Below are positions 2 through 18,911 of a stretch of DNA of 59,763 nucleotides, one piece after another. The notes below the pieces were generated by a model. It saw nothing but the letters and a program-made list of their open reading frames with translations. It ran no database searches and had not been told where the DNA came from. The position numbers were made by a program, and so were the translations under genes. Position 1 is the stretch's first letter. Each line of letters begins with the position of its first letter. This stretch comes from Streptomyces sp. NRRL F-5727 (GTDB taxonomy: Bacteria; Actinomycetota; Actinomycetes; Streptomycetales; Streptomycetaceae). The DNA is taken from contig NZ_JOGX01000040.1 in assembly GCF_000719555.1 (NCBI RefSeq), positions 1 to 59,763 on the forward strand, written 5' to 3'.

Positions 2-454
2 ACCCTCACCACCCCCACCGCCACCGCCGACCGCTCCTTCGCCGTCGCCGTCCACCCGCTGCTCGCCTCCGCACCCCGCCTGGCCGGACTCATGGCCGGC
101 CGCCCCGGCCGGATCATCGCCGTCACCAGCACGGGCGCACGCCGGGTCGTCCCGCGCTACGCGGGCGCCGGAATCGCCAAGGCGGCCCTGGAAGCCCTCG
201 TCCGCTACCTCGCGGCCGAACTCGCCGGCCAGGGCATCACCGTGAACGCGGTCTCCGCCGCCAAGCTGGACAAGGGCGACGGCAGCATGCCCGCCGAACT
301 GGCCAAGACCCTCGCCGCCCGCACACCCGGCGGCCGGCTCACCACCCCCGAGGACATCGCCGACGTCGTGTCCCTGCTCTGCGCCGACGAAGCCGGATGG
401 CTCCAAGGGCAGATCCTCACCGTCGACGGCGGCCTCGGCCTGCTCGCGGGCTGA
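2..454 (+). CDS. SDR family oxidoreductase, C-terminal part (5' end off window)
   Basis: The gene enters from the left edge in an open frame, so only about 150 C-terminal residues are visible. They show the second half of a classical short-chain dehydrogenase: a beta strand ending in VTSTGA, a Tyr followed four residues later by Lys (YAGAGIAK, the YxxxK catalytic pair), the segment GITVNAVS, and the C-terminal signature WLQGQILTVDGG found in FabG-like enzymes. The family reduces keto groups or oxidises alcohols with NAD(P)H in the cytoplasm. It is followed after 13 bp by an FAD monooxygenase, so it probably acts as a tailoring reductase in the same operon. Substrate unknown. Confidence 0.85.
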   Translation, partial: TLTTPTATADRSFAVAVHPLLASAPRLAGLMAGRPGRIIAVTSTGARRVVPRYAGAGIAKAALEALVRYLAAELAGQGITVNAVSAAKLDKGDGSMPAELAKTLAARTPGGRLTTPEDIADVVSLLCADEAGWLQGQILTVDGGLGLLAG

Positions 455-467
455 AAGGGGAACGCAC

Positions 468-1772
468 ATGACGACCGACGCCCGGACCACCGCCACGCCC
501 CACCACGACGACGAACTCCACACCGACGTCCTCGTCGTGGGCGGCGGGCCCGCGGGGCTCGCCCTCGCCCTGATGCTGCTGCGCTCGGGGATCCGCGTCA
601 CCGTCCTGGAGAAGTCCACCCGCCTGGAGCGCGAGTACCGCGGAGAGATCCTCCAGCCCGGCGGACAGCGCATCCTGAGCACCCTCGGCGTCCTGGACGC
701 GGCCCGCGCGGCAGGCGCCTGCGCACTCGACGGCTTCCAGCTCGTCGACCGCGACCGCACCCTCCTCGACATCGACTACCGGCGGCTGCCCGCCCCCTTC
801 GACCACCTCCTGGCGATGCCGCAGCGCCACCTGCTCCAGGCGCTCCTCGACGTCTGCCACCGGCTGCCCGGCTTCCACTACCTCGACGGACACCGGATCA
901 GGTCCCTCCTCGGACACCCGGGCAGGATCACCGGGGCCGTCGCCGCCCGCCCGGGCGGGCAGCGCACCGTCCACGCCCCCGTGGTCGTCGGAGCCGACGG
1001 CAGGTTCTCCAAGACCCGCACGCTCGCCGGCATCGCGGCGGGCCGCACCGACACCTTCCAGCACGACGTGCTCTGGTTCAAGGTGGACGCCCCCGGCCGG
1101 CAGACCCGGCACGTGCGCATCCACCGGACCGGCGCCAGCCCCGTCCTCGTACACGACTCCCACCCCGACCGACTCCAGATCGGCTGGACACTGCCGCACC
1201 AGAGCTGGCCGCGGATCGCCGAGCGGGGAATCGGCGCGGTCAAGCGCGAGCTGATCGCCGCGCTCCCGCAGTTCGCCGACCTCATCGACCAGTCCGTCAC
1301 CGCCCTGTCCGATCTGTCCCTCCTCGACGTCTTCGCCGGCAAGGCCCCCCACTGGGTCCGCGACGGACTCGTCCTCATCGGCGACAGCGCCCACACCCAC
1401 AGCCCGCTCGGCGCCCAGGGCATCAACCTCGCCCTCCAGGACGCCGCGGCCCTCCACCCGGTGCTCGTCGACGCCCTCCGCGACGGCGACACCACCAGCC
1501 GGCGCCTCGCAGCCTTCGCCGACGCCCGCATGCCCGCCGTGGACGCCGTCACGAAGATGCAGGAGATCCAGGCCAAGGGAATGTTCGGGGCCGGCGGGCC
1601 GGTCGCCGACCTGCTGCGCTCCACCGCCGCCCGGGTGATCCGCCGCACCCCGCTCGGCGTGAAGATCACCCACCGGGTCGCCCACGGACACCCTGCCGTC
1701 GACGTCCGCACCGACCTGTTCACCACCGCCCCCGCCCACGACGCCGCCGACATGGCCCACCCGAAGGGATGA
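468..1772 (+). CDS. FAD-dependent aromatic-type monooxygenase
   Basis: This 434-residue protein has the three landmarks of class A flavoprotein hydroxylases (UbiH/PHBH family): the Rossmann GGGPAG near residues 25-30, a central DG motif (VGADGRFSK), and the FAD-ribityl GD motif (LIGDSAHTHSP, about residue 305) followed by GINLALQDA. These enzymes hydroxylate or epoxidise aromatic or polyketide substrates using NAD(P)H and O2. An AAAGGGG ribosome site precedes the ATG. It lies between an SDR and a cyclase-family gene in a tightly packed run, so it probably tailors a secondary metabolite. No membrane segment is visible. Confidence 0.88.
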   Translation: MTTDARTTATPHHDDELHTDVLVVGGGPAGLALALMLLRSGIRVTVLEKSTRLEREYRGEILQPGGQRILSTLGVLDAARAAGACALDGFQLVDRDRTLLDIDYRRLPAPFDHLLAMPQRHLLQALLDVCHRLPGFHYLDGHRIRSLLGHPGRITGAVAARPGGQRTVHAPVVVGADGRFSKTRTLAGIAAGRTDTFQHDVLWFKVDAPGRQTRHVRIHRTGASPVLVHDSHPDRLQIGWTLPHQSWPRIAERGIGAVKRELIAALPQFADLIDQSVTALSDLSLLDVFAGKAPHWVRDGLVLIGDSAHTHSPLGAQGINLALQDAAALHPVLVDALRDGDTTSRRLAAFADARMPAVDAVTKMQEIQAKGMFGAGGPVADLLRSTAARVIRRTPLGVKITHRVAHGHPAVDVRTDLFTTAPAHDAADMAHPKG

Positions 1773-1777
1773 CCCCC

Positions 1778-2551
1778 ATGCGCATCATCGACCTCTCCTC
1801 ACCCGTGGACGCCGCCGCGTGGGAACCCGATCCCGTGATCCACGAGATCCTCACCCCCGCCGAAGGCGCCCGGCACATGAGCGCGGAGATGAAGGAACAC
1901 TTCGGCCTCGACCTCGACCCGTCGGTCCTGCCCGGGGGCGAACTGCTCTCCCTGGACACCTTCACCCTCACCAGCCACACCGGCACCCACGTCGACGCCC
2001 CCTCGCACTACGGCTCGACGGCCGACTACGGCACCCCCCGCCACATCCACGAGATGCCGCTCGACTGGTTCCACCGCCCCGCCATCCGCCTCGACCTGCG
2101 CGACCAGCCCGTCGGAGCCGTCGGCGTCGACGTCCTCGAGAAGGCCATCGCACGCGCCGGCCGCACCCCCGACCCCTACGACATCGTGCTCCTCAACACC
2201 GGAGCCGACGCCCACCTGGGCACGCCGAAGTACTTCACCGACTTCACCGGCCTCGACGGCCAGGCCACCGACTTCCTCCTCGACCTCGGCGTCAAGGTCA
2301 TCGGCACCGACGCCTTCAGCCTCGACGCGCCGTTCGGCGACATGATCCGCCGCTACCAGCAGACCGGCGACCCCGCCGTCCTGTGGCCCGCGCACTTCGC
2401 CGGCCGGCGCCGCGAGTACTGCCAGATCGAGCGGCTGCACAACCTGGACGCCCTGCCCGGAGACTTCGGCTACACCGTGTCCTGCCTGCCCGTGAAACTG
2501 GTCGGCTCCGGCGCGGGCTGGGCCCGCGCGGTGGCCCTGGTCGAGGAGTGA
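1778..2551 (+). CDS. Cyclase family protein (kynurenine formamidase-like metal hydrolase)
   Basis: The 257-residue product has the PF04199 signature HTGTHVDAPSH at about residues 67-77, whose His and Asp residues bind the metal in bacterial kynurenine formamidases, and a later GTDAFSLDAPF segment. Family members hydrolyse N-formyl amides or act in natural-product pathways, where they are often annotated as cyclase. An ATG at 1769 overlaps the upstream stop but has no room for a ribosome site. The ATG at 1778 lies 9 bp after GAAGGG, so I prefer it. A role with the neighbouring monooxygenase on an aromatic or formylated intermediate is inference. Confidence 0.8.
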   Translation: MRIIDLSSPVDAAAWEPDPVIHEILTPAEGARHMSAEMKEHFGLDLDPSVLPGGELLSLDTFTLTSHTGTHVDAPSHYGSTADYGTPRHIHEMPLDWFHRPAIRLDLRDQPVGAVGVDVLEKAIARAGRTPDPYDIVLLNTGADAHLGTPKYFTDFTGLDGQATDFLLDLGVKVIGTDAFSLDAPFGDMIRRYQQTGDPAVLWPAHFAGRRREYCQIERLHNLDALPGDFGYTVSCLPVKLVGSGAGWARAVALVEE

Positions 2552-2559
2552 CAGCGGCC

Positions 2560-3141
2560 ATGACGACCCCACCCCTGCGCCTCGCCCTGATCGTCGGCTC
2601 CACCCGCACCGGCCGCTTCGGGCCGACCGTCGCCGGCTGGTTCGCCGACCGGGTACGCGACCACACCGCCTTCGACGTCGACGTGATCGACCTCGCCGAA
2701 CTCCAGCTGCCCCCCGCCCTGCCCGCCTTCGGTGCCGACCCGGGACCCCAGGTCGAAGCGCTCGCGGGCCGCCTCGCCCGGGCCGACGCCTTCGCCGTGG
2801 TGACCCCCGAGTACAACCACAGCTTCCCGGCTCCCCTCAAGGACATGATCGACCGCTTCCGCACGCCGTGGCACGCCAAGCCGGTCGGCTTCGTCTCCTA
2901 CGGCGGCATGTCGGGCGGCCTGCGCGCCGTCGAGCAACTCCGGCCGGTCTTCGCGGAGCTGCACGCGGTCACCGTGCGCGACCAGGTCAGCTTCCACAAC
3001 GTCTGGGAGGTGTTCGACACCGACGGACGCCCCCTCAACCCGCCCGCGGCCGAGACCGCCGCCAAACAGCTCCTGGACCAGCTCGCCTGGTGGGCGCGGG
3101 CCCTGCACACCGCCCGAACCGCCCACCCCTACGCGGCCTGA
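2560..3141 (+). CDS. NADPH-dependent FMN reductase-like flavoprotein
   Basis: The 193-residue protein has the flavodoxin-like fold of the FMN_red family (PF03358): an N-terminal phosphate-binding loop (GSTRTGRFG), the conserved TPEYNHSFPAPLKD segment, and SYGGMSGGLRA. Such enzymes reduce FMN or quinones with NAD(P)H in the cytoplasm. It starts 8 bp after the cyclase-like gene, so it belongs to the same transcript. It may supply reduced flavin to an oxygenase. In a YcaO context it could also be the azoline-oxidising partner, although the usual azoline dehydrogenases belong to another (nitroreductase) family. That second option is speculative. Confidence 0.82.
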   Translation: MTTPPLRLALIVGSTRTGRFGPTVAGWFADRVRDHTAFDVDVIDLAELQLPPALPAFGADPGPQVEALAGRLARADAFAVVTPEYNHSFPAPLKDMIDRFRTPWHAKPVGFVSYGGMSGGLRAVEQLRPVFAELHAVTVRDQVSFHNVWEVFDTDGRPLNPPAAETAAKQLLDQLAWWARALHTARTAHPYAA

Positions 3142-3369: not shown

Positions 3370-4674
3370 ATGCGCCACACCCCACCGCGGACCGGCAGCC
3401 GCAAGCCCCCGCCGCCCGCCGCCTGGCGCGGGCTCCCCCCGGTCTTCTGGTGGATCTGGGCCGGACTCGTCGTCAACTGGATGGGCTCCTTCGCCGGCCC
3501 CATGCTCGCCTTCTCCCTCACCACGGACCGCGGCTACTCCGCCTCCTCCACCGGGCTGGTCGTCTCCCTGCTCGGCGCGGGCGCGTTCGCGGGCAACCTC
3601 CTGGGAGGCGCCCTCGCCGACCGGGCCGGCCGGCGCCGCGTCCTCATCGCGGGCCACTGCCTCGGCGCGGCCGGCATGGCGACGCTCGGGCTCACCGGGC
3701 AGGCCGCGACCGTCGCCCTGGCGGCCACCGCCGTCGGTCTGGGAGCCGGTGCGGCCCGCACCGCGGCCGGCGCCGTCCTGGCCGACGTCCTGCCGGCCGA
3801 GGACCGGCAGCGGGCCTTCGCCCTGAACTACTGGGCGGTGAACGCCGGAACGGCCGTCTCGGCGGTGCTGGCCGGCCTCCTGGTCGTCCACGGCTACCTC
3901 CTGCTGTTCCTCGCCGACGCCGCGGCCACCGCACTGTGCGCCCTGATCGTCTGGGCCAGGGTGCCGGAGACCCTGCCCGCCGCCCGCCGGCACACCGGGC
4001 ACGGGCCGGCCTCCGCGCCGGTGCGCGGCGACCGGCCCTTCGTCCTGTTCGTCCTGCTGACCGCCGTGTTCGCGATCGTCCTCGAGCAGCGGTCCGGCGC
4101 ACTGGCCGTGGTGATGGCCGGACAAGGACACACCCCGACCGACTTCAGCGTGGTCAACGCCGTCAACGCGCTGCTGGTCGTCGCCCTCCAGATCCCGCTG
4201 TCACGGCTCGTCGAGCGACGCTCCCGGGGCGGAGTGCTGGCCGCGGCAGGACTGCTCGTCGCGGCCGGTCTCGGACTCACCGGCCTCGCCGACGGCCTCG
4301 CCGCCTACGCCGCCCTGACCGTGCTGTGGACGCTGGGCGAGATGCTCCAGGCCCCGGCCGGCAGCGCGGTGACCGCCGGGCGCGCCCCGGAGGCCCTGCG
4401 CGGCCGCTACCTGGGCGCCTACGGCGGTGCCTGGTCCGCGGCCGCGTTCCTCGGCCCCGCCGCCGGCGGCTGGTGCCTCGACCAGTGGGGCGCCCCCACC
4501 CTGTGGGCGCTGTGCGCCGCCCTGGGCGCCGTGGCCGGCTGCGGCTGGCTGCTCGCCGTCGGCGGCGAAGACTTCCGTACGGCGACCGCCGTACGGTCCG
4601 GGGGCGCGTCCGCGCCCCCGGTGGCCCCGGCCGCGAACGGCCGGGAACCCGACCGGAAAGGACGACCCTCATGA
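3370..4674 (+). CDS. MFS transporter
   Basis: About 434 residues with roughly twelve hydrophobic segments, and the major-facilitator loop signature between helices 2 and 3 (GGALADRAGRRR). Proton-driven drug or metabolite export across the cytoplasmic membrane is the usual role. I start at the ATG at 3370 because GAAGGA lies just upstream; a longer open frame to 3298 has no ribosome site. The stop overlaps the ATG of the following peptide gene by four bases (ATGA), so transporter and peptide are translationally coupled. This suggests export of, or immunity to, the peptide-derived product. Confidence 0.88.
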   Translation: MRHTPPRTGSRKPPPPAAWRGLPPVFWWIWAGLVVNWMGSFAGPMLAFSLTTDRGYSASSTGLVVSLLGAGAFAGNLLGGALADRAGRRRVLIAGHCLGAAGMATLGLTGQAATVALAATAVGLGAGAARTAAGAVLADVLPAEDRQRAFALNYWAVNAGTAVSAVLAGLLVVHGYLLLFLADAAATALCALIVWARVPETLPAARRHTGHGPASAPVRGDRPFVLFVLLTAVFAIVLEQRSGALAVVMAGQGHTPTDFSVVNAVNALLVVALQIPLSRLVERRSRGGVLAAAGLLVAAGLGLTGLADGLAAYAALTVLWTLGEMLQAPAGSAVTAGRAPEALRGRYLGAYGGAWSAAAFLGPAAGGWCLDQWGAPTLWALCAALGAVAGCGWLLAVGGEDFRTATAVRSGGASAPPVAPAANGREPDRKGRPS

Positions 4675-4832
4675 ACCCGATGACCGCCGCCACGCAGAAC
4701 CAGCCGCTCGACGCGGAGGCGCTGACCGTCAGCAACTGCGTACCGGCCCGTCTCGACGACGAGACGGCCCCGCACCGCCTCGACGAGACGGCCCTGCTGG
4801 TCACCAACTGCGTACCGGCCCACGCGGCCTGA
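4671..4832 (+). CDS. Putative RiPP precursor peptide with duplicated NCVPA unit
   Basis: A 53-codon gene lies between an MFS transporter (ATGA overlap) and a YcaO enzyme (its stop shares one base with the YcaO ATG). The peptide has a short polar N-terminus (residues 1-12), then two aligned 14-residue units: residues 13-26 (LDAEALTVSNCVPA) and 37-50 (LDETALLVTNCVPA). Ten of 14 positions are identical. A linker with a partial RLD-DETA copy separates them. Each unit has one Cys, the usual substrate residue for YcaO cyclodehydration. A 16-base DNA stretch is also repeated exactly (4734-4749 and 4806-4821), so the unit arose by recent duplication. I do not recognise this precursor family; precursor status is inferred from context and repeat structure. 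Confidence 0.75.
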   Translation: MNPMTAATQNQPLDAEALTVSNCVPARLDDETAPHRLDETALLVTNCVPAHAA

Positions 4833-6214
4833 TGCGCTCGCCCGACCCGAAGCCCGGCCGCGGCGGCACCGAGCCGCCCGCGCCGGGCTCCGGCCCCCTG
4901 TCCCGTTTCGTCACCCGCACCCGCGTCGCCCGGGGCCTCGGCGGCACCCCCGCCGCCCTGCACCTGGCCGTCGCCGACCTGCCCGAAGGACCCCCCTGGC
5001 AGAGCGACCGCCAGACCTTCGGCACCTCGTGGGAGTCGGCACAGGCCGCCACCCTTCGCGCCGTCGGCGAGGCGGTGGAGCGCACCTGCGGTGACGCCGC
5101 CCCCCAGCCGGGCCGCCTGCTGCACGGCAGCTACGAGACACTGCGCCGCCGCGGCGCCGCACCCCTGGACCCCGCGACACTGGCCCTGTACTCGCCCCGG
5201 CAGTACGCCACCGCGGGGTTCCCCTTCACGCCCTTCACCCGGGACGCGCCCGCCGCCTGGGTCGAAGCCCACTCGCTCACGCGCGACGCACCCGTCCACG
5301 TACCGGCCTTCCTGGTGTACGCGGCCTGGCGCCGCATGCCGGCGGCACGCGCGGAACCCCTGTACGCCTTCCCGCCGCTGGGTGGAACAGCCGCCGCGGC
5401 CACGCGCGAGCAGGCCCTGCTGGGAGCCCTGGGGGAGGTCGTCGAGCGGGACGCCGCCGCCGTCTGGTGGGCCAACGCCCACCCGCTGCCCGCCCTGCCC
5501 CTCACCCCCGAACTGCGGGCGCTGACCGGGGGAGGGCAGCGCGGGTTCGACATCCGGCTGGTCGGCATCGACAACGAGTTCGGGATCCCGGTGGTCGCCG
5601 CCGGCGTCCGCAGCCGCGACGAGGGCTGGCTGACCTACGGGTTCGCCGCCCGCGACAGCGCACCGGAGGCGGCGGCCAAGGCGCTCGCCGAGGCGTACAC
5701 GCTCCAGCACACCTGCCGCACCCTGGACACTCCCGGCACCGCGCCCCGGACGGCGACGCGCGCCTCCGCCCTCAGGCCGCATCGACCGGACCGTCGCTAT
5801 CTCGACTCCTACCGGGCCTCCACGGGCGAGGTGGCCGGCATGACCGAGCAGCTGTGCCACCTCCAGCTCCATCTGGATCCCCGGGCCGCGCCGCGGATCG
5901 CGCCCTGGGCATGGGATCTGCCGACCGGCCGGTGGCCGCAGGAGCGCCCGCACGACCGCGGCCTGCCGGCGGCCCTGCGCGCTGTGGAGGCCGCGGGCTT
6001 CGAGGCGGTCGCCGTCGATCTGACGACCGCCGAAGCCGCCGGGGCCGGTCTCCACGCCTGCCGGGTCATCGTCCCCGGCACCGTCCAGGCGGCGCCCGCC
6101 GCCTACCCCGCGCGCGGCGTGCGCCGCATGCAGGACACGGCCGTACGGCTGGGGTGGCGGACCCACGCGCTGGAGGAGGAACACCTCAACTCCTTCCCCG
6201 TCCCGCACGCGTGA
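4832..6214 (+). CDS. YcaO-type cyclodehydratase / peptide-backbone-modifying enzyme
   Basis: The 460-residue protein carries the three acidic ATP/Mg-binding signatures of the YcaO fold: GEAVERTCG near residues 79-87, ALGEVVERDA near 200-208, and ALAEAYTLQ near 285. The C-terminus is a short proline-containing tail (NSFPVPHA), as in many YcaO proteins. The family activates a peptide amide with ATP to form azolines, thioamides or amidines. No ThiF/E1-like leader-binding domain, TfuA or fused nitroreductase is seen, so it is a stand-alone YcaO. The adjacent Cys-containing peptide, with a one-base TGATG overlap, is the obvious substrate candidate. A RimO/ribosomal-protein role is less likely in this context. 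Confidence 0.9.
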   Translation: MRSPDPKPGRGGTEPPAPGSGPLSRFVTRTRVARGLGGTPAALHLAVADLPEGPPWQSDRQTFGTSWESAQAATLRAVGEAVERTCGDAAPQPGRLLHGSYETLRRRGAAPLDPATLALYSPRQYATAGFPFTPFTRDAPAAWVEAHSLTRDAPVHVPAFLVYAAWRRMPAARAEPLYAFPPLGGTAAAATREQALLGALGEVVERDAAAVWWANAHPLPALPLTPELRALTGGGQRGFDIRLVGIDNEFGIPVVAAGVRSRDEGWLTYGFAARDSAPEAAAKALAEAYTLQHTCRTLDTPGTAPRTATRASALRPHRPDRRYLDSYRASTGEVAGMTEQLCHLQLHLDPRAAPRIAPWAWDLPTGRWPQERPHDRGLPAALRAVEAAGFEAVAVDLTTAEAAGAGLHACRVIVPGTVQAAPAAYPARGVRRMQDTAVRLGWRTHALEEEHLNSFPVPHA

Positions 6215-6256: not shown

Positions 6257-7030
6257 CTACTCGCCCCACTTCATGTAGATGACCGGGGGCTCACGACCGG
6301 GCAGCTGGCGCAGGGGGGCGTGGTCCAGCCCCAGCACCTCGCGCAGGGCGGTGGTCTCCCCGGGCCACTTGGGGTGGGCCAGCTCGTCGAAGGCGAGGAT
6401 GCTGCCCTTGGTCAGGTACGGCTTGATGCACTCCAGGAGTTCCTTGGTCGGCTGGTAGAGGTCCAGGTCGAAGAAGGCGAGCGCGATCACGGTCTCCGGG
6501 TTCTCCTCCAGGTACTTCGGAACCGTCTCCCGCACGTCGCCCTGCACCACGAAGGTGCGCTGGGTGTGCCCGAACGGCTCGCTCGCCTCGTGGGCGGCGA
6601 GCACCTCGCGCAGATGGTCCACCTCGCCGTCGGGCACCGCGAAACGCCCGGCCACCGCACTGGTGCTGACCCGGTCCACCTCCGCGATGTCCGGGAAGCC
6701 GGTGAAGGTGTCGAAGCCGACGATGCGGCGCAGGGAGTTGTACGGCTCGTAGATGCTGCGCAGCGCCGTGAGCGCGGCGAGGTGCCGGCCGTGCAGCACA
6801 CCGAACTCCATGACGGTGCCGGGTATCTCGGGCAGCATCCGGTACAGGGCGTCCATGCTGAGCAGGTCGGCGAGCTGGTGGCGCCGCAGATAGACCGGCA
6901 GGTTGTCGATGAGGTACTCGGGCGGCATGGGCGTCTCGACGAGGAGCTTGGTCAGCCGTTCGCGGACGTCCCGCTCCTGCGCCGACTCGTGCGGGACGAA
7001 CCGCGGGTCGGTGAACTTGTCAGCGGTCAT
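6257..7030 (-). CDS. TylF/MycF-type O-methyltransferase
   Basis: The 257-residue protein resembles macrocin O-methyltransferases. A VMEFGVLHGRH segment binds SAM, the acidic run FFDLDLYQPTKELL corresponds to the family's metal/substrate-binding region, and GSILAFDEL follows. TylF-family enzymes methylate sugar or other hydroxyls, usually Mg-dependently. The start with upstream AAAGGGAA is preferred over a longer frame lacking a ribosome site. It is convergent with YcaO and divergent from the epimerase gene, so it is probably part of the same biosynthetic locus. Whether it methylates the peptide product or a sugar is unknown. Confidence 0.87.
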   Translation of the reverse strand: MTADKFTDPRFVPHESAQERDVRERLTKLLVETPMPPEYLIDNLPVYLRRHQLADLLSMDALYRMLPEIPGTVMEFGVLHGRHLAALTALRSIYEPYNSLRRIVGFDTFTGFPDIAEVDRVSTSAVAGRFAVPDGEVDHLREVLAAHEASEPFGHTQRTFVVQGDVRETVPKYLEENPETVIALAFFDLDLYQPTKELLECIKPYLTKGSILAFDELAHPKWPGETTALREVLGLDHAPLRQLPGREPPVIYMKWGE

Positions 7031-7380: not shown

Positions 7381-8367
7381 ATGTCGACTCAGTACTGGGC
7401 CGGAAAAACAGTCGTGGTGACGGGAGCGACGGGATTCATCGGAACCCACTTCGTCACGGAACTGCTGAGCCGAGGGGCACACGTCGTCTGCCCGGTCCGC
7501 GGCGACGCCCCCCGCCTCCCCGCCGCCACCCCGGACGAGACACGGCTCAGAACGGTGCCCGCGGACCTCCTCGACGAGAACGCCCTGCGCGGCACCTTCG
7601 AGACCACCCCCGGAGGCGTGGACGCGGTCATCCACTGCGCGGCGGTGTGGGGAAACGCCGGCTTTCGCTACGACCACCCGGCCCGGGTATTCGAGGAGAA
7701 CCTCAGGATCACCACCCACATACTGCACTGCGCACGCCGCTACGGCGTCCCCGACACCGTGCTGATGGGATCCGGCGAGGTCTACCGGACAGAAGTGGAC
7801 CGCCCTTTCCGGGAGACCGACTTCGACGGCTCCTTCACCTACACGCCGGATGGCTACTACCTGGCCAAGGTGTACGAGGAGACACTGGCGGAGACCTACC
7901 GCCTCGAATACGGGATGCGCATATTCCAGCCCCGGCCCAGCAGCGTCTACGGGCCGGGAGACGACTTCGGCCCGCACACCAACAAGGTCATCCCCATCAT
8001 GTTCCGCAAGGCCATGGCCGACGAGGGGATCACCCTGTGGGGAGACGGCCTGCAGACACGCACCTACATCTTCGTCACCGACCTGGTGCGCGGCGTCCTG
8101 GAGACGGTCGAGAAGAACGACCACCACATCGTCAACATGGGAACACCCGAAGTCGTCACCATGCGCCGGCTGGCGTCCATGGTGTACGCCGCACTCGGCC
8201 GACCGGAGGACATACGGCTCGACAGGAACAAGCCCGCGGGCCGCCGAAGCCGCACCCTCGACCTCTCCCGCCTCCACGAGACGATCAGCTTCGCACCACG
8301 CGACCTCGACCAGGGCCTGCGACAGACAGCCGCCTGGCTCCGCAGGACCCCGCCCCCGGCCGGCTGA
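7381..8367 (+). CDS. NAD-dependent epimerase/dehydratase
   Basis: The 328-residue extended short-chain dehydrogenase has an N-terminal nucleotide-binding GATGFIG at about residues 15-21, the catalytic Tyr/Lys pair in YYLAKVYEE, and a PRPSSVYGPGD segment typical of sugar-nucleotide epimerases and reductases. It acts in the cytoplasm on NDP-sugars or related carbonyl substrates. Paired divergently with a TylF-type methyltransferase, it suggests a deoxysugar or other decorated moiety, but no glycosyltransferase is seen in the window. It could instead reduce a non-sugar intermediate. Confidence 0.87.
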   Translation: MSTQYWAGKTVVVTGATGFIGTHFVTELLSRGAHVVCPVRGDAPRLPAATPDETRLRTVPADLLDENALRGTFETTPGGVDAVIHCAAVWGNAGFRYDHPARVFEENLRITTHILHCARRYGVPDTVLMGSGEVYRTEVDRPFRETDFDGSFTYTPDGYYLAKVYEETLAETYRLEYGMRIFQPRPSSVYGPGDDFGPHTNKVIPIMFRKAMADEGITLWGDGLQTRTYIFVTDLVRGVLETVEKNDHHIVNMGTPEVVTMRRLASMVYAALGRPEDIRLDRNKPAGRRSRTLDLSRLHETISFAPRDLDQGLRQTAAWLRRTPPPAG

Positions 8368-10093: not shown

Positions 10094-10987
10094 GTGGACA
10101 CCCTGGAGACCCGCCTGGAGACCCGCGAGCTCAGGTACTTCGTGGCCGTCGCCGAGGAACTGCACTTCGGGCGCGCCGCCGAGCGCCTCGGCATGGCCCA
10201 GCCGCCGCTGTCGCGAGCGATCCAGCAGCTCGAACGGCGCCTCGGGGTCGTCCTGCTGCAGCGCAACCGCCGCGGTGTCCGCCTGACCGCCGCCGACGAG
10301 GTGCTGCTGCGGGAGGGCCGGGCGGCCCTCGACGCGACCGCCGCCGCCGCGCGCCGCACCCGGCGCGCCGGCGGCGCCGACAGCCCCGGCGGCCCCCGCG
10401 AGCGGCTGGTCCTCGCGGTGAAGGCCGCCGCCTCCCACGAACTGCTGCGGACGCTTCTCGACGCCTACGCGGCCGAGCCCGACAGCGCCGAGATCGAGGT
10501 ACTGCCCTGCGGCATCAGCGAGCAGGGACAGCTGCTGCGCGACGGACGCGCCGACGCCGCGCTCATGTACACGCCGTGGAACTCCCTCGCCGGGTTCGAC
10601 AGCGAGCCGCTGACGACCGAGGGGCAGGTCGCCGTCCTGCCTGCCGGGCACCCCCTCGCCGCCCGCGCGACCCTGTCCCTGGCCGAGGTCAGGGACGTCC
10701 CCGACCTGCCGCTCGCCCGCTGGCCCACCCGCGGCGCCTACGCACCCGGCCCGGGCCCCGAGATCCACGACCAGACGCAACTGGCCCAGCTGATCGCCCT
10801 CGGACGCACCCTGGCGGTCGTCCCCGCGTCAGCCCGCTCCTGGCTGTGGGCCGAGCACACGGCCGTCCCCGTGACCGACGCACCCCCCGTCGTGACCCAC
10901 ATCGCCTGGCCCCCGCACAGCCGCTCCCTCACCCTGGCCGCCCTGGTCCGCACCGCCACCCGCACTGTCAGAGCAGCCGCCAGGTGA
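10094..10987 (+). CDS. LysR family transcriptional regulator
   Basis: The 297-residue regulator has a winged helix-turn-helix in the first 70 residues (LHFGRAAERLGMAQPPLSRAI... QLERRLGVVLLQR), then an effector-binding domain. It starts with GTG. Divergence from the SDR with a LysR box between them points to local control. The 3' end overlaps the convergent M64 peptidase gene by 20 bp, so the two transcripts are antisense at their ends. Effector unknown. Confidence 0.88.
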   Translation: MDTLETRLETRELRYFVAVAEELHFGRAAERLGMAQPPLSRAIQQLERRLGVVLLQRNRRGVRLTAADEVLLREGRAALDATAAAARRTRRAGGADSPGGPRERLVLAVKAAASHELLRTLLDAYAAEPDSAEIEVLPCGISEQGQLLRDGRADAALMYTPWNSLAGFDSEPLTTEGQVAVLPAGHPLAARATLSLAEVRDVPDLPLARWPTRGAYAPGPGPEIHDQTQLAQLIALGRTLAVVPASARSWLWAEHTAVPVTDAPPVVTHIAWPPHSRSLTLAALVRTATRTVRAAAR

Positions 10988-12371
10988 GGGAGTTGGAGCT
11001 CGCCGCGCGGACGGCGGGGTCGCGTACGGCGGCGGTGGTGTCGGTGACGGTGGCGGTGACGCGCTGACCGCTGCGGGTGGCGCCGAGTTCGGCGGGGGTC
11101 ACCGACAGGTCGCCGGTGGCCCAGGTGACCTGCCTGCCGTCGACGTACCAGGTCAGGTGCAGGCCCGCCAGGCCGGTCACCGGCGCGAGCCGCACGGTCA
11201 GCGGCTGGGTCGGGCCGACCCGCCGGCCCGTCGGCACGGTCGAGGTCAGGGCGTCGGCGTGGGTGTAGAAGCCCTTGATCATCGCCTCGCGGCCGACGTG
11301 GTTGAAATCGGTGGAGGCGAGGGTCCGCATGAGGGAGGTGTCGGTCGGGCGGTAGACGCCCGTCTCGTAGTAGTCGCCGCCCTCGTACGTGCCGATCGGC
11401 GAGCCGGTCGGGTCCTGCTCGCCGACCCAGCGGTACCACTTGCTCGTGCCGAGGTCGGCGGCGGTGGAGATGTTGGTGCTGGCGGACGACTTGTACGGGT
11501 AGGCGCCGTAGCCGGCGTACTGGTACTCGTCGGCCAGCTCGCCTATGGAGTGGCCGAGCTCGTGGGCGCCGATGAGGTACGACTGCGCGTGGTCGGAGGA
11601 CATGGTCGCGATGCCGCGGTACGACGCCCCGGCCGGCGGCCGGGAGAAGCTGTAGCCCGCGCCGCCGTACTTGGCGGAGTTGGCGATGACGAAGACGATG
11701 TCGGAGGCCGGGGCCCGGCCGGCGTGGGCGGTGACCTTGGACTCGTCGACGCAGAGCAGCCGCTCCATGCCGTCGCAGAAGAAGTAGGAGCTGAGGGCCG
11801 TGTCCCTGACGACGTCGGCCGTCGGGTCGCCGGAGACGCCGGACTCGGCGGAGTCGGCGTCCACCAGCCAGATGTTGAACAGGCCCCGGTAGCTGGCGTA
11901 CGGCTCGACGGCGAAGACCGCGTCGATCGTCGCCTGCGCGTCCGCGCGGAAGTCGGCCTGCTGGGCGGCGGTGTAGCCGTCGCCCATGACCACCAGGTCG
12001 AGACGGCCCGTGACGGGCCCGGTCTCCTGGACGGCCGTGACCGTCGCGCCGACGGCTGCACCGGGGGTGGAGGTCTGGTGACGGGCGATCCTGTCCGGGG
12101 CGTGCGCCGGGACGTGCCGGTGCCGGGGATGACCCTCGGGGCCGCCGAAGTACTCGACCTCGTGGGTCTCCGCCGCGCCGGAGACGCCGGCGAGGCCGGG
12201 GACGGGTCCGGAGACGGGAACGGCGGTGGAAGTGGCGGGGTGGGGGGCGGGGGAGGGGGCCGGAGCGGGGGCCGCTCCGGCCGCGCTCGCGCCGGCGAGC
12301 AGGGCCGCGGTGGTGAGGGCGGCGCCGACGGAGGCGATCCAGCGGGTACGGCTGCTTCCGCGTCTGGGCAC
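10968..12371 (-). CDS. Secreted M64-family metallopeptidase (IgA peptidase M64)
   Basis: The 467-residue protein starts with a signal peptide (basic RR, hydrophobic core, Ala-rich cleavage region near residues 30-40) and an Ala/Pro linker. The peptidase M64 domain carries the zinc signature HELGHSIGELADEY (residues 270-283), where the two His and a following Asp/Glu are metal ligands. An Ig-like C-terminal domain (about residues 375-467) follows. M64 enzymes are secreted zinc proteases; in soil Streptomyces the target is probably environmental protein. Three CTTAAG-type sites lie just upstream. Confidence 0.88.
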   Translation of the reverse strand: MPRRGSSRTRWIASVGAALTTAALLAGASAAGAAPAPAPSPAPHPATSTAVPVSGPVPGLAGVSGAAETHEVEYFGGPEGHPRHRHVPAHAPDRIARHQTSTPGAAVGATVTAVQETGPVTGRLDLVVMGDGYTAAQQADFRADAQATIDAVFAVEPYASYRGLFNIWLVDADSAESGVSGDPTADVVRDTALSSYFFCDGMERLLCVDESKVTAHAGRAPASDIVFVIANSAKYGGAGYSFSRPPAGASYRGIATMSSDHAQSYLIGAHELGHSIGELADEYQYAGYGAYPYKSSASTNISTAADLGTSKWYRWVGEQDPTGSPIGTYEGGDYYETGVYRPTDTSLMRTLASTDFNHVGREAMIKGFYTHADALTSTVPTGRRVGPTQPLTVRLAPVTGLAGLHLTWYVDGRQVTWATGDLSVTPAELGATRSGQRVTATVTDTTAAVRDPAVRAASSNSLTWRLL

Positions 12372-17672: not shown

Positions 17673-18911
17673 CTACGCCACTGCCAGTGCTGAGGACTGC
17701 GGCGCCGGGAACGCGGTGTGCTCATCGAACAGGCGGCGGTTCTTGAGACAGTGGTGGAGCTGGCCCAGCATCCGGTTGAACAGATTGCGCTGGCCAGCGG
17801 CGTGCCAGTCTCCGTGGTCGTCACGTCGCCGCCGGTAGTGCGCTTTGGCACCGGGCGAGGCGGTGATCGCTGAGAACGCCCAGAGGTAGCCGGCGTGGCT
17901 GAGCCGGTTGTTCTTCACCCATCGTCTGGTGATGCTGGACTTCTTGCCGGAGGCCCGGGTAACGGGTGAGGCGCCCGCGTAAGCCTTCAGGCCGCGGGCG
18001 TCCGCGAAGCGGGTGCGGTCGTCTCCGATTTCGGCCAGCACCCGGGCGGCAAGCTGGATACCGAGGCCGGGGAAGCTGAGGATGATTTCCGAGTCCGGGT
18101 GCTGCGGGAACGTCTCCTCGACGGCCTGGGCGAGGTCTGCGGCGGCGGTGCAGGCGGCCGTGAGCTGTCCAAGCAGGGCGAGCGTCTGCTTGCCGAGCGC
18201 ATCCTCGACAAGCTCGGGCTGACGGGCCCAGTCGGTGCGGAATGCCTCGCGCAGCCGCTCGACATCCGCCTCGATGCCGCGCTTGCGGCCCGCACCCTTG
18301 AGAGCCGCCGTGATCTGGGTGCGAGTCAGGCTCGCGGCCTTGGCCGGTGTCGGCGCGAGCTTCATCAGCTCGCGGGCCTCCGGTCGGCACAAGCCGTTGT
18401 CCCACTTGGCGAAGGCCTCCAGAGCGGCGGGGTAGTACTCGCGCAGCAGCGAGCGAAGCTGGTTGGCAACCTGCTGCCGGTTCCAGACCGCGTCCTGCTG
18501 AGCGCGGGCCAGTACGGCGATGGCGCGGGCCAGCTCGCTGTCGTTCGGCAGCGGCCGGTGGGCATGCATATCCGTGCGCAGGAGGTTCGACAGGACCAGG
18601 GCGTCGCCGGGGTCGGACTTCTTGCGGGAGACCGCGTGCCGGTCACGGTAGCGGGCGGCAGCCATCGGGTTGATCGCGAACACCTTCCGCTTGCCTGCCC
18701 GCAGCACCGCGACCAGCAGACCGCGGGAGGTCTCGATCGCAACCGGAATCGGGGTGTCCTCCGTGTCGCCGTACTCGGCGAGCAGGTCTATCAGGCTCCT
18801 GTAGCCGGCCGCGTCGTCGGTGATGTGTCGCTTCGCAAGTAGCTGGCCGGTGTCGTCGACCAAGGCAACGTCGTGTGTCCTCTCGGCCCAGTCGGTTCCG
18901 CAGTAGATCAA
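17673..18911 (-). CDS. IS110 family transposase (intact)
   Basis: The 412-residue protein has the N-terminal DEDD transposase domain (CGTDWAE with Asp near residue 7, AIET near 58, KKSDPGDA near 101-108) and the C-terminal transposase_20 domain (FPGLG-QLAARVLAEIGD, then AYAGASPVTR). The catalytic acids and the conserved C-terminal Ser region are in place, so the enzyme looks functional. IS110 elements lack clear terminal inverted repeats and recombine through a bridge-RNA-type mechanism in studied members; I could not define the ends. It lies 60 bp upstream of the preceding hypothetical gene's start. Confidence 0.9.
   Translation of the reverse strand: MIYCGTDWAERTHDVALVDDTGQLLAKRHITDDAAGYRSLIDLLAEYGDTEDTPIPVAIETSRGLLVAVLRAGKRKVFAINPMAAARYRDRHAVSRKKSDPGDALVLSNLLRTDMHAHRPLPNDSELARAIAVLARAQQDAVWNRQQVANQLRSLLREYYPAALEAFAKWDNGLCRPEARELMKLAPTPAKAASLTRTQITAALKGAGRKRGIEADVERLREAFRTDWARQPELVEDALGKQTLALLGQLTAACTAAADLAQAVEETFPQHPDSEIILSFPGLGIQLAARVLAEIGDDRTRFADARGLKAYAGASPVTRASGKKSSITRRWVKNNRLSHAGYLWAFSAITASPGAKAHYRRRRDDHGDWHAAGQRNLFNRMLGQLHHCLKNRRLFDEHTAFPAPQSSALAVA

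What the first reader, a model, noticed from the sequence alone, without database searches (positions are those of the whole stretch)
4671..6214. Unrecognised YcaO RiPP pair: precursor with duplicated NCVPA unit and stand-alone YcaO
A 53-residue peptide is sandwiched by overlapping codons between an MFS exporter and a YcaO enzyme. It carries two aligned 14-residue units (positions 13-26 and 37-50, 10 of 14 identical), each ending Asn-Cys-Val-Pro-Ala with a single Cys. The 16-bp DNA repeats (4734-4749, 4806-4821) support recent duplication. YcaO enzymes act on Cys, Ser or Thr in precursor peptides, and no leader-binding E1/ThiF or TfuA partner is seen, so this would be a minimal system. I do not recognise a known class with this precursor. 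The two units could yield two copies of a small modified product, or act as repeated recognition elements.
Basis: partly seen in the sequence, partly recalled or inferred. Interest (0 to 1): 0.93.

Follow-up and report, generated by a model that had tools for sequence, protein, structure and literature searches.

The report
Leaderless repeat peptides with lone YcaO
A compact set of three genes, shared by several Streptomyces and their relatives, encodes a short peptide built of two to ten near-identical cysteine-containing units, an enzyme of a family known for turning cysteines into rings, and a likely exporter; it is predicted to make small modified peptides without the usual helper protein and often without a leader, and its product is not yet known.

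Summary
The 53-residue peptide (4671-4832) is joined by overlapping codons to an MFS transporter and a 460-residue YcaO, and its two NCVPA units are not chance (0 of 5000 shuffles). It is not a strain quirk. In 8 of 8 loci of this YcaO clade whose DNA I could read, the same place holds a peptide of 2-10 units, consensus [FL]-V-V-N-[NT]-C-V-x-A-[YFH]; 16 distinct peptides were found (Streptomyces, Kitasatospora, Amycolatopsis, others unnamed). The clade (50 rows, 100 SH-aLRT) consists of stand-alone YcaOs; relatives fused to a leader-binding half and other stand-alone lineages lie outside, and none of 22 such loci (1.5 kb around the match; 12 also over 6.6-19 kb) has the peptide. MFS-peptide-YcaO is the constant core; a JmjC oxygenase joins it in 4 of 8 loci. 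No TfuA was found in the genome. Best reading: a minimal multi-core RiPP system in which a partner-free YcaO would cyclise the single Cys of each unit to a thiazoline. Chemistry, cleavage and function are untested. The open papers searched do not describe it, but a 2021 survey of stand-alone YcaOs may list it uncharacterised in supplements I could not read.

The parts
3370..4674 (+). MFS transporter, likely exporter of the product
   Evidence: Pfam MFS_1 7e-43; its stop overlaps the precursor ATG as ATGA; an upstream frame ends with the same 4-base overlap in the other 7 loci
4671..4832 (+). 53-aa multi-unit precursor peptide
   Evidence: conserved family of 16 distinct peptides; no Pfam or NCBIfam match
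4707..4748 (+). unit 1, residues 13-26, LDAEALTVSNCVPA
4779..4820 (+). unit 2, residues 37-50, LDETALLVTNCVPA
4734..4749 (+). 16-bp exact repeat, copy 1 (AACTGCGTACCGGCCC)
4806..4821 (+). 16-bp exact repeat, copy 2
4832..6214 (+). stand-alone YcaO (SagD-type D protein), 460 aa, predicted to cyclise the Cys of each unit
   Evidence: Pfam and NCBIfam; AlphaFold2 model mean pLDDT 88, best PDB matches LynD, MusD, TruD; residues 1-20 of low confidence, no extra domain

Best explanation
This is a three-gene operon (MFS transporter, multi-unit peptide, stand-alone YcaO) that likely makes a ribosomal peptide product in which the YcaO would convert the single Cys of each unit to a thiazoline without a leader-binding partner. 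Shown: the conserved gene order with overlapping or abutting codons; peptides made of 2-10 units N-[NT]-C-V-x-A; Cys as the one constant ring-forming residue; a YcaO of the LynD/TruD fold without the N-terminal leader-binding half; no TfuA match in the genome. Inferred: (1) the YcaO would recognise the unit itself, since half of the peptides have almost nothing before the first unit; (2) ATP-dependent attack of each Cys thiol on the preceding Asn/Thr carbonyl would give thiazolines, not thiazoles, because no dehydrogenase is shared by the loci; (3) host peptidases, or the YcaO itself, would cut the chain into units, as no protease gene is shared; (4) the MFS protein would export the small products; (5) in loci with a JmjC oxygenase a residue near the Cys, perhaps the Asn/Asp two before it, would also be hydroxylated. 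Biological role untested; a small antibiotic, metal ligand or signal are all open.
For: Peptide present at the same place in 8 of 8 loci of the clade with DNA (window, L031, L032, L034, L035, L036, L060, L061); 16 distinct peptides, consensus over 50 full-length Cys windows: -1 N 30 / T 20, +1 V 45, +3 A 48. The chain ends 5-6 residues after the last Cys in 13 of 16; first Cys at residue 13 or earlier in 8 of 16. Units of L032, L060 and L061 have no Ser/Thr within 5 residues (9 of 9 units), so Cys is the only candidate there. Within arrays synonymous exceed non-synonymous proportions in 7 of 8. The 50 clade rows (43 database proteins, 7 loci) form one group, 100 SH-aLRT, against 32 others (99 with fewer rows). 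Peptide scan: 0 of 12 non-clade regions, 7 of 7 clade regions. 43 of 43 aligned YcaOs keep E80, E83, R84, E202, E205, D207 (role recalled). No gene but MFS and YcaO shared by all loci. No TfuA.
Against: No chemistry was measured. The YcaOs end in PxPH, not the full PxPxP quoted for azoline-forming YcaOs. The window's own two units show no synonymous difference and one amino-acid difference in the six core codons, and L034 against L060 shows pS 0.00, pN 0.09 over 42 codons, so purifying selection is not visible everywhere. P0073 has a middle unit without Cys, and P0076 carries two Cys outside the motif. The window peptide has 12-17 residues before its first unit, which could act as a short leader. 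A cryptic or small partner, or one encoded elsewhere, could escape the search (AmiB was such a case). DNA was read for only 8 loci of the clade.
Confidence: 0.6

Rival explanations
1. The YcaO installs a backbone thioamide (+15.98 Da) rather than a thiazoline, as in thiovarsolins, whose precursor is likewise a series of repeats.
For: Repeating precursor plus YcaO is the thiovarsolin design (passages of PMC6511847); an archaeal YcaO thioamidates McrA (search listing with abstract).
Against: No TfuA match in the whole genome; the YcaO passes the SagD cut-off and reaches only 42.1 bits against a cut-off of 365 for the McrA-thioamidation model; a near-constant Cys would have no role.
Confidence: 0.1
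2. The YcaO forms an amidine or another ring using a backbone or terminal amine, as in streptamidine or bottromycin; Cys serves recognition, metal binding or a transient ring.
For: Bottromycin YcaOs work without partner protein, and streptamidine comes from a clade of stand-alone YcaOs whose precursors carry a motif one to three times (PMC8442711, passages and section 6).
Against: The AmiD-like YcaO that I located near an HLSATH precursor falls outside the clade (99 SH-aLRT); the precursor there has no Cys and no resemblance to these units; no gene besides MFS and YcaO is shared by the 8 loci, so no set like amiB, amiC, amiE travels with them.
Confidence: 0.12
3. The units are not separate products: the whole modified chain, for example a poly-thiazoline metal binder, is the end product.
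For: L035 has ten 9-residue units without spacers and no protease gene is shared.
Against: An MFS transporter with an overlapping reading frame in all 8 loci fits a small product better (inference); spacers and unit number vary.
Confidence: 0.12
4. The peptide is translated but only a coupling or regulatory ORF between transporter and YcaO, not a substrate.
For: ATGA and TGATG overlaps are typical of translational coupling.
Against: Protein-level conservation of a Cys motif in repeated copies across genera, with synonymous variation in codons.
Confidence: 0.04

Closest known systems
Thiovarsolin (varAYT) RiPPs
   Same: Streptomyces; precursor with imperfect repeats, up to five in that family; YcaO; peptide, YcaO and TfuA genes suffice for one product (passages of PMC6511847)
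   Different: Needs TfuA, has a predicted leader, makes thioamidated APR tripeptides; here no TfuA, and units carry Cys
Streptamidine family
   Same: Stand-alone actinobacterial YcaO; a motif one to three times in the precursor (PMC8442711 section 6)
   Different: Other precursor (HLSATH, ALV), cryptic E1-like AmiB, hydrolase, dehydrogenase, iron transporters; YcaO in another clade
Bottromycin
   Same: YcaO works without partner protein; no canonical leader; thiazoline from Cys (passages)
   Different: Follower peptide, two YcaOs, dedicated amidohydrolase and aminopeptidase
Cyanobactin heterocyclases LynD, TruD, MusD
   Same: Same YcaO fold, nearest solved relatives with 19-22% identity in the fold match; Cys cyclodehydration and several cores per precursor (recalled)
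   Different: They carry an N-terminal leader-binding half; precursors have leaders and recognition sequences (recalled)
C-D fused actinobacterial YcaOs (719-784 aa, P0046-P0055)
   Same: Nearest sequence relatives outside the clade
   Different: N-terminal extension of about 260-320 residues (leader-binding by my reading of its sequence, not by a family scan); no multi-unit peptide found near fused loci

Membership tests
RiPP | precursor gene beside a modifying-enzyme gene, conserved together | tested here: met
   8 of 8 loci of the clade with DNA
RiPP | post-translational modification of the precursor shown | not testable with these tools
   needs expression and MS
RiPP | leader (or follower) plus core in the precursor | tested here: inconclusive
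   first Cys at residue 13 or earlier in 8 of 16, at 18-24 in the other 8; chain ends 5-6 residues after the last Cys in 13 of 16. The window peptide has 12-17 residues before unit 1. Bottromycin shows that a leader is not required
Azoline-forming (TOMM) YcaO | YcaO/SagD domain with conserved acidic motifs | tested here: met
   residue roles recalled
Azoline-forming (TOMM) YcaO | C protein (E1-like/RRE) partner or fusion | tested here: not met
   460 aa, low-confidence residues 1-20 then YcaO fold; no shared partner among ORFs of 80 residues or more in 8 loci; small, cryptic or distant partner not excluded
Azoline-forming (TOMM) YcaO | C-terminal PxPxP | tested here: inconclusive
   PxPH invariant in 43 of 43; last Pro missing; TruD and LynD align with it up to their P-M-P near the C-terminus
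TfuA-YcaO thioamide RiPPs | TfuA partner | tested here: not met
   0 matches in the own genome; control rang in 1 of 14 genomes, Methanosarcina acetivorans
Streptamidine family | YcaO of the AmiD clade | tested here: not met
   AmiD-like protein outside the clade
Streptamidine family | motif A or B precursor | tested here: inconclusive
   no HLSATH-like core in the peptides read; motif logos are in figures not held
Bottromycin | bottromycin precursor | tested here: not met
   NCBIfam scan of the window peptide: 0 families (the survey names NF033414 for this family)
Bottromycin | YcaO without partner | tested here: met
   with the limits above; it works like one in this respect only

The most novel reading that the evidence does not exclude
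A self-sufficient RiPP class: a YcaO that has shed its leader-binding half reads the core motif N-[NT]-C-V-x-A directly, makes a thiazoline at every repeat of a leaderless poly-core chain, and itself cuts the chain between units by ATP-driven peptide bond cleavage as MusD does, so that peptide, one enzyme and one exporter suffice.
Probability: 0.2. Interest if true: 0.88.

Novelty: new variant of a known kind. Interest (0 to 1): 0.72.

Why it matters
Azoline-forming YcaOs normally need a leader peptide and a partner domain to find their substrate (established knowledge). A clade without the partner, whose substrates are strings of nearly bare cores, offers a direct test of how a YcaO can choose its residue without a leader, and a compact tool for modifying peptides. 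Tools that search for leader-binding domains would miss it. My search already lists 43 database proteins of the clade. The products would be unknown metabolites of Streptomyces, Kitasatospora and Amycolatopsis.

Tried and rejected
Precursor alone against 392 Streptomyces-group genomes: 159 genomes had matches at E<=1, the best outside the window 0.0017 with a stop inside; these were not followed, and the true relatives in G308, G314 and G076 were not seen this way, so single-peptide search is useless for spread. (294 genomes) repeated a subset of the same pool. Searches (81 relatives, own included; 8, 35 and 90 genomes) found no further locus of the clade; Amycolatopsis DNA was not reached. 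The first tree was invalid because minus-strand loci had been read on the wrong strand; one search corrected this but its motif filter dropped most genome-search loci; one search places them strand-aware (there the row for L049 is a copy of its neighbour L043, so L049's own YcaO is not placed). The repeat scan read one strand only and was repeated on both strands and over wider regions. In one search, for fused genes the 1.5 kb upstream of the match is partly the gene itself. Weak self-repeats near L037, L038 and L079 were not pursued. Rejected: an anti-phage role (no PADLOC match for the three genes); that the upstream SDR/FAD-monooxygenase/cyclase/FMN-reductase genes belong to the core system (no homologous neighbour among predicted ORFs of the other 7 loci for those in my list; the FMN reductase was not in that list), although they may tailor this strain's product. 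Literature: 10 searches; none of six unit strings occurs in the held papers; 'NCVPA' has no occurrence in the 30 papers listed of 284; four papers use one of six stand-alone-YcaO phrases. Supplements were not readable, so prior listing in the 2021 survey cannot be excluded.
Full report
OBSERVATION. The window is a whole contig of a 7.9-Mb genome in 187 contigs; its left end is a contig end. The 53-residue ORF 4671-4832 lies between an MFS gene (3370-4674) and a YcaO gene (4832-6214) with ATGA and TGATG overlaps. Both units, the 10-of-14 identity and the exact 16-bp repeats are as reported; 0 of 5000 shuffles of the peptide reach 10 identities.

CONSERVATION. Two named Streptomyces loci found with the YcaO (L031 and L032, 59% identity) have a small ORF at the same place with three units each. 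Searching 392 genomes of the genus gave 15 with E<=1e-40; four of these (G000, G308, G314, G076) belong to the clade and all four carry the peptide. The family sample gave 4 of 249 at E<=1e-60, two in the clade with peptide (G000 and G424). The class sample gave 8 of 394, of which only the window has the peptide in the scans made. The samples overlap. A plasmid of Streptomyces sp. NBC_00158 adds L060. In all, 8 of 8 clade loci with readable DNA have it. The precursor ATG overlaps the stop of a long upstream frame by 4 bases in each. The first base of the YcaO start lies 0 to 5 bases past the last base of the precursor stop in 7 of 8; in L061 the script found no start, and the match there begins about 90 bases on.

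THE PEPTIDE FAMILY. A profile of 8 peptides found 11 proteins at E<=10 among 334 candidates from 5.8 billion sequences, among them Kitasatospora, Amycolatopsis, one labelled Microtetraspora glauca (identical to that of L036) and metagenome members. I take 16 distinct peptides together. They hold 51 Cys; 50 have a full 11-residue window. Position -1 is N (30) or T (20), +1 V (45), +3 A (48), +4 Y, F or H (42). Unit number runs from 2 to 10. Cys-to-Cys spacing is 9 without spacer in L035 and 10 in the two Amycolatopsis-type peptides; 8 of 16 have only spacings of 14-17, with spacers that are mostly acidic; the window has 24. In 8 of 16 the first Cys stands at residue 13 or earlier, so there is hardly a leader; the window peptide is of the other sort. 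Exceptions: P0073 has a middle unit that lost its Cys, P0076 has two further Cys outside the motif, and P0078 has one unit with T for the +3 A. P0073 and the YcaO P0006 list the same longest-contig length, 75,631, and both are from Streptomyces sp. NPDC096033, a likely ninth pair.

SELECTION. Comparing the six core codons between units of one array, synonymous exceed non-synonymous proportions in 7 of 8 arrays (for example L035 0.43 vs 0.09, L032 0.67 vs 0.00); the window array is the exception (0.00 vs 0.07), and the near pair L034-L060 shows 0.00 vs 0.09 over 42 codons. So the protein motif is kept over the family, while recent change in single strains is not always conservative.

THE ENZYME. 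Pfam covers residues 69-417 only. The AlphaFold2 model (mean pLDDT 88.1) has a low-confidence first 20 residues and then the YcaO fold; Foldseek's best PDB matches are LynD (4v1v), MusD (7u58) and TruD (4bs9), and sequence search finds the same three and an archaeal YcaO. No further domain is seen. In the final tree (82 rows) 50 rows, the 43 database proteins P0003-P0045 and seven loci, form one group with 100 SH-aLRT; 32 rows lie outside: fused forms and other stand-alone lineages (L044-L047, L069, open frames 463-538). So stand-alone YcaOs as such do not predict the peptide; membership in this clade does. Earlier trees with fewer rows gave 99 (61 rows, 70 rows with AmiD and eight outgroup rows). 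All are quick trees. The nearest relatives outside are fused, which suggests that the clade lost its leader-binding half; the root is only a midpoint. None of 22 loci outside the clade shows a peptide with two or more [NTDS]C[VA]xA motifs in about 4 kb, nor do 12 wider regions of 6.6-19 kb, while the same scan rings exactly once in each of 7 clade regions.

THE SURROUNDINGS. A comparison of predicted ORFs of 80 residues or more in the 8 loci (regions of 13.6 to 21.4 kb) found only MFS and YcaO families in common (in L060 the MFS was missed by my gene caller but is annotated). Other neighbours differ in most: xanthine-dehydrogenase-like and sugar transporter in L031, RF3 in L070, a glycosyltransferase and a GFO/IDH oxidoreductase in L051. 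In 4 of 8 loci (L050, L052, L060, L070) a JmjC_2 protein (61-83% identity to that of L060) lies before the MFS, with a possible start codon 4 bases into its end (annotated as the MFS start in L060). L050 and L060, two near relatives, also share an AMP-binding/carrier protein and a thioesterase upstream (86-87% identity), and L052 has a distant thioesterase (37%); a larger pathway in these loci is possible. Units of the type [ND]-N-C occur in 10 of 11 units of the four JmjC loci and 0 of 18 units of the other four. The loci are not independent, so this is a lead only. A JmjC oxygenase hydroxylates ornithine in biphenomycin (passages of PMC12707348), which makes side-chain hydroxylation plausible.

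MECHANISM. Shown: gene order, motif, enzyme family, missing partners. Inferred: thiazoline at each Cys. Cys is the only constant ring-forming residue, and 9 of 9 units in L032, L060 and L061 have no Ser or Thr within five residues; the nearest solved enzymes are cyclodehydratases; no TfuA was found in the genome; no dehydrogenase is shared. How units are released is open. Thiovarsolin B is made from repeats by only peptide, YcaO and TfuA genes in S. coelicolor (PMC6511847 passages), so host peptidases can suffice; MusD shows that a YcaO can itself cleave a peptide bond with ATP (PMC10885120 passage).

COMPARISON AND NOVELTY. It works like the repeat-core thiovarsolin system and like the partner-free bottromycin YcaOs but lacks tested defining features of each. 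It is not streptamidine-like by clade; I located an ami-type precursor in G056 by the HLSATH motif and named a YcaO about 2.7 kb on AmiD-like from the published gene order. Cox et al. 2015 state that very little is known of clusters using a stand-alone D protein (PMC4603692 passages). Russell et al. 2021 mined 1514 stand-alone actinobacterial YcaOs and give the full peptide networks only in supplements (section 6); this family may sit there unnamed. The ten searches listed no paper that I recognised as describing it; the library holds open-licence papers only. I therefore call it a new variant of a known kind.

VERDICT. The finding is real and conserved; I put 0.95 on a genuine precursor-YcaO pair and 0.6 on the full thiazoline explanation.

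Noticed in passing
window 92-3141: SDR (cut by the contig end), FAD monooxygenase, PF04199 cyclase and NADPH-FMN reductase run in the same direction just upstream of the MFS; no counterpart seen at the other loci, so membership in the pathway is unsure.
   Followed up: partly
L050, L052, L060, L070, just upstream of the MFS: JmjC_2 oxygenase; its presence goes with [ND]-N-C units (10 of 11 against 0 of 18).
   Followed up: partly
L050 54-2359 and L060 4666-7457: Shared AMP-binding/carrier protein and thioesterase upstream of the JmjC gene in two loci.
   Followed up: partly
L035 1190-1483: Ten head-to-tail 9-residue units APNTCVSAF-like with no spacer, the largest array seen.
   Followed up: partly
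G049:C1 106083-107444 and 10569694-10571055: Two copies with identical match scores of a fused YcaO on opposite strands near the two chromosome ends, as in terminal inverted repeats.
   Followed up: no
G183:C144 48062-50626 (L043, L049): Two YcaO genes lie side by side.
   Followed up: no
L047 (G178): Stand-alone YcaO whose C-terminus is the same ten residues as that of the AmiD-like protein of G056; probably a streptamidine-type cluster.
   Followed up: no
L037 near 3910: Frame with repeated RLWTTARLCTTA units about 1.1 kb from the YcaO match; may be chance.
   Followed up: no
L067 (G919): YcaO with a 572-residue open frame grouping with fused forms, possibly an intermediate architecture.
   Followed up: no
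window 10971-12371: M64 peptidase on the minus strand; no counterpart among the other loci's predicted ORFs.
   Followed up: no
window 17676-18707: IS110-type transposase.
   Followed up: no
window 6260-7030 and 7381-8367: Methyltransferase (Methyltransf_24, weak TylF match; minus strand) and NAD-dependent epimerase (plus strand) right after the YcaO; no counterpart among the other loci's predicted ORFs.
   Followed up: partly
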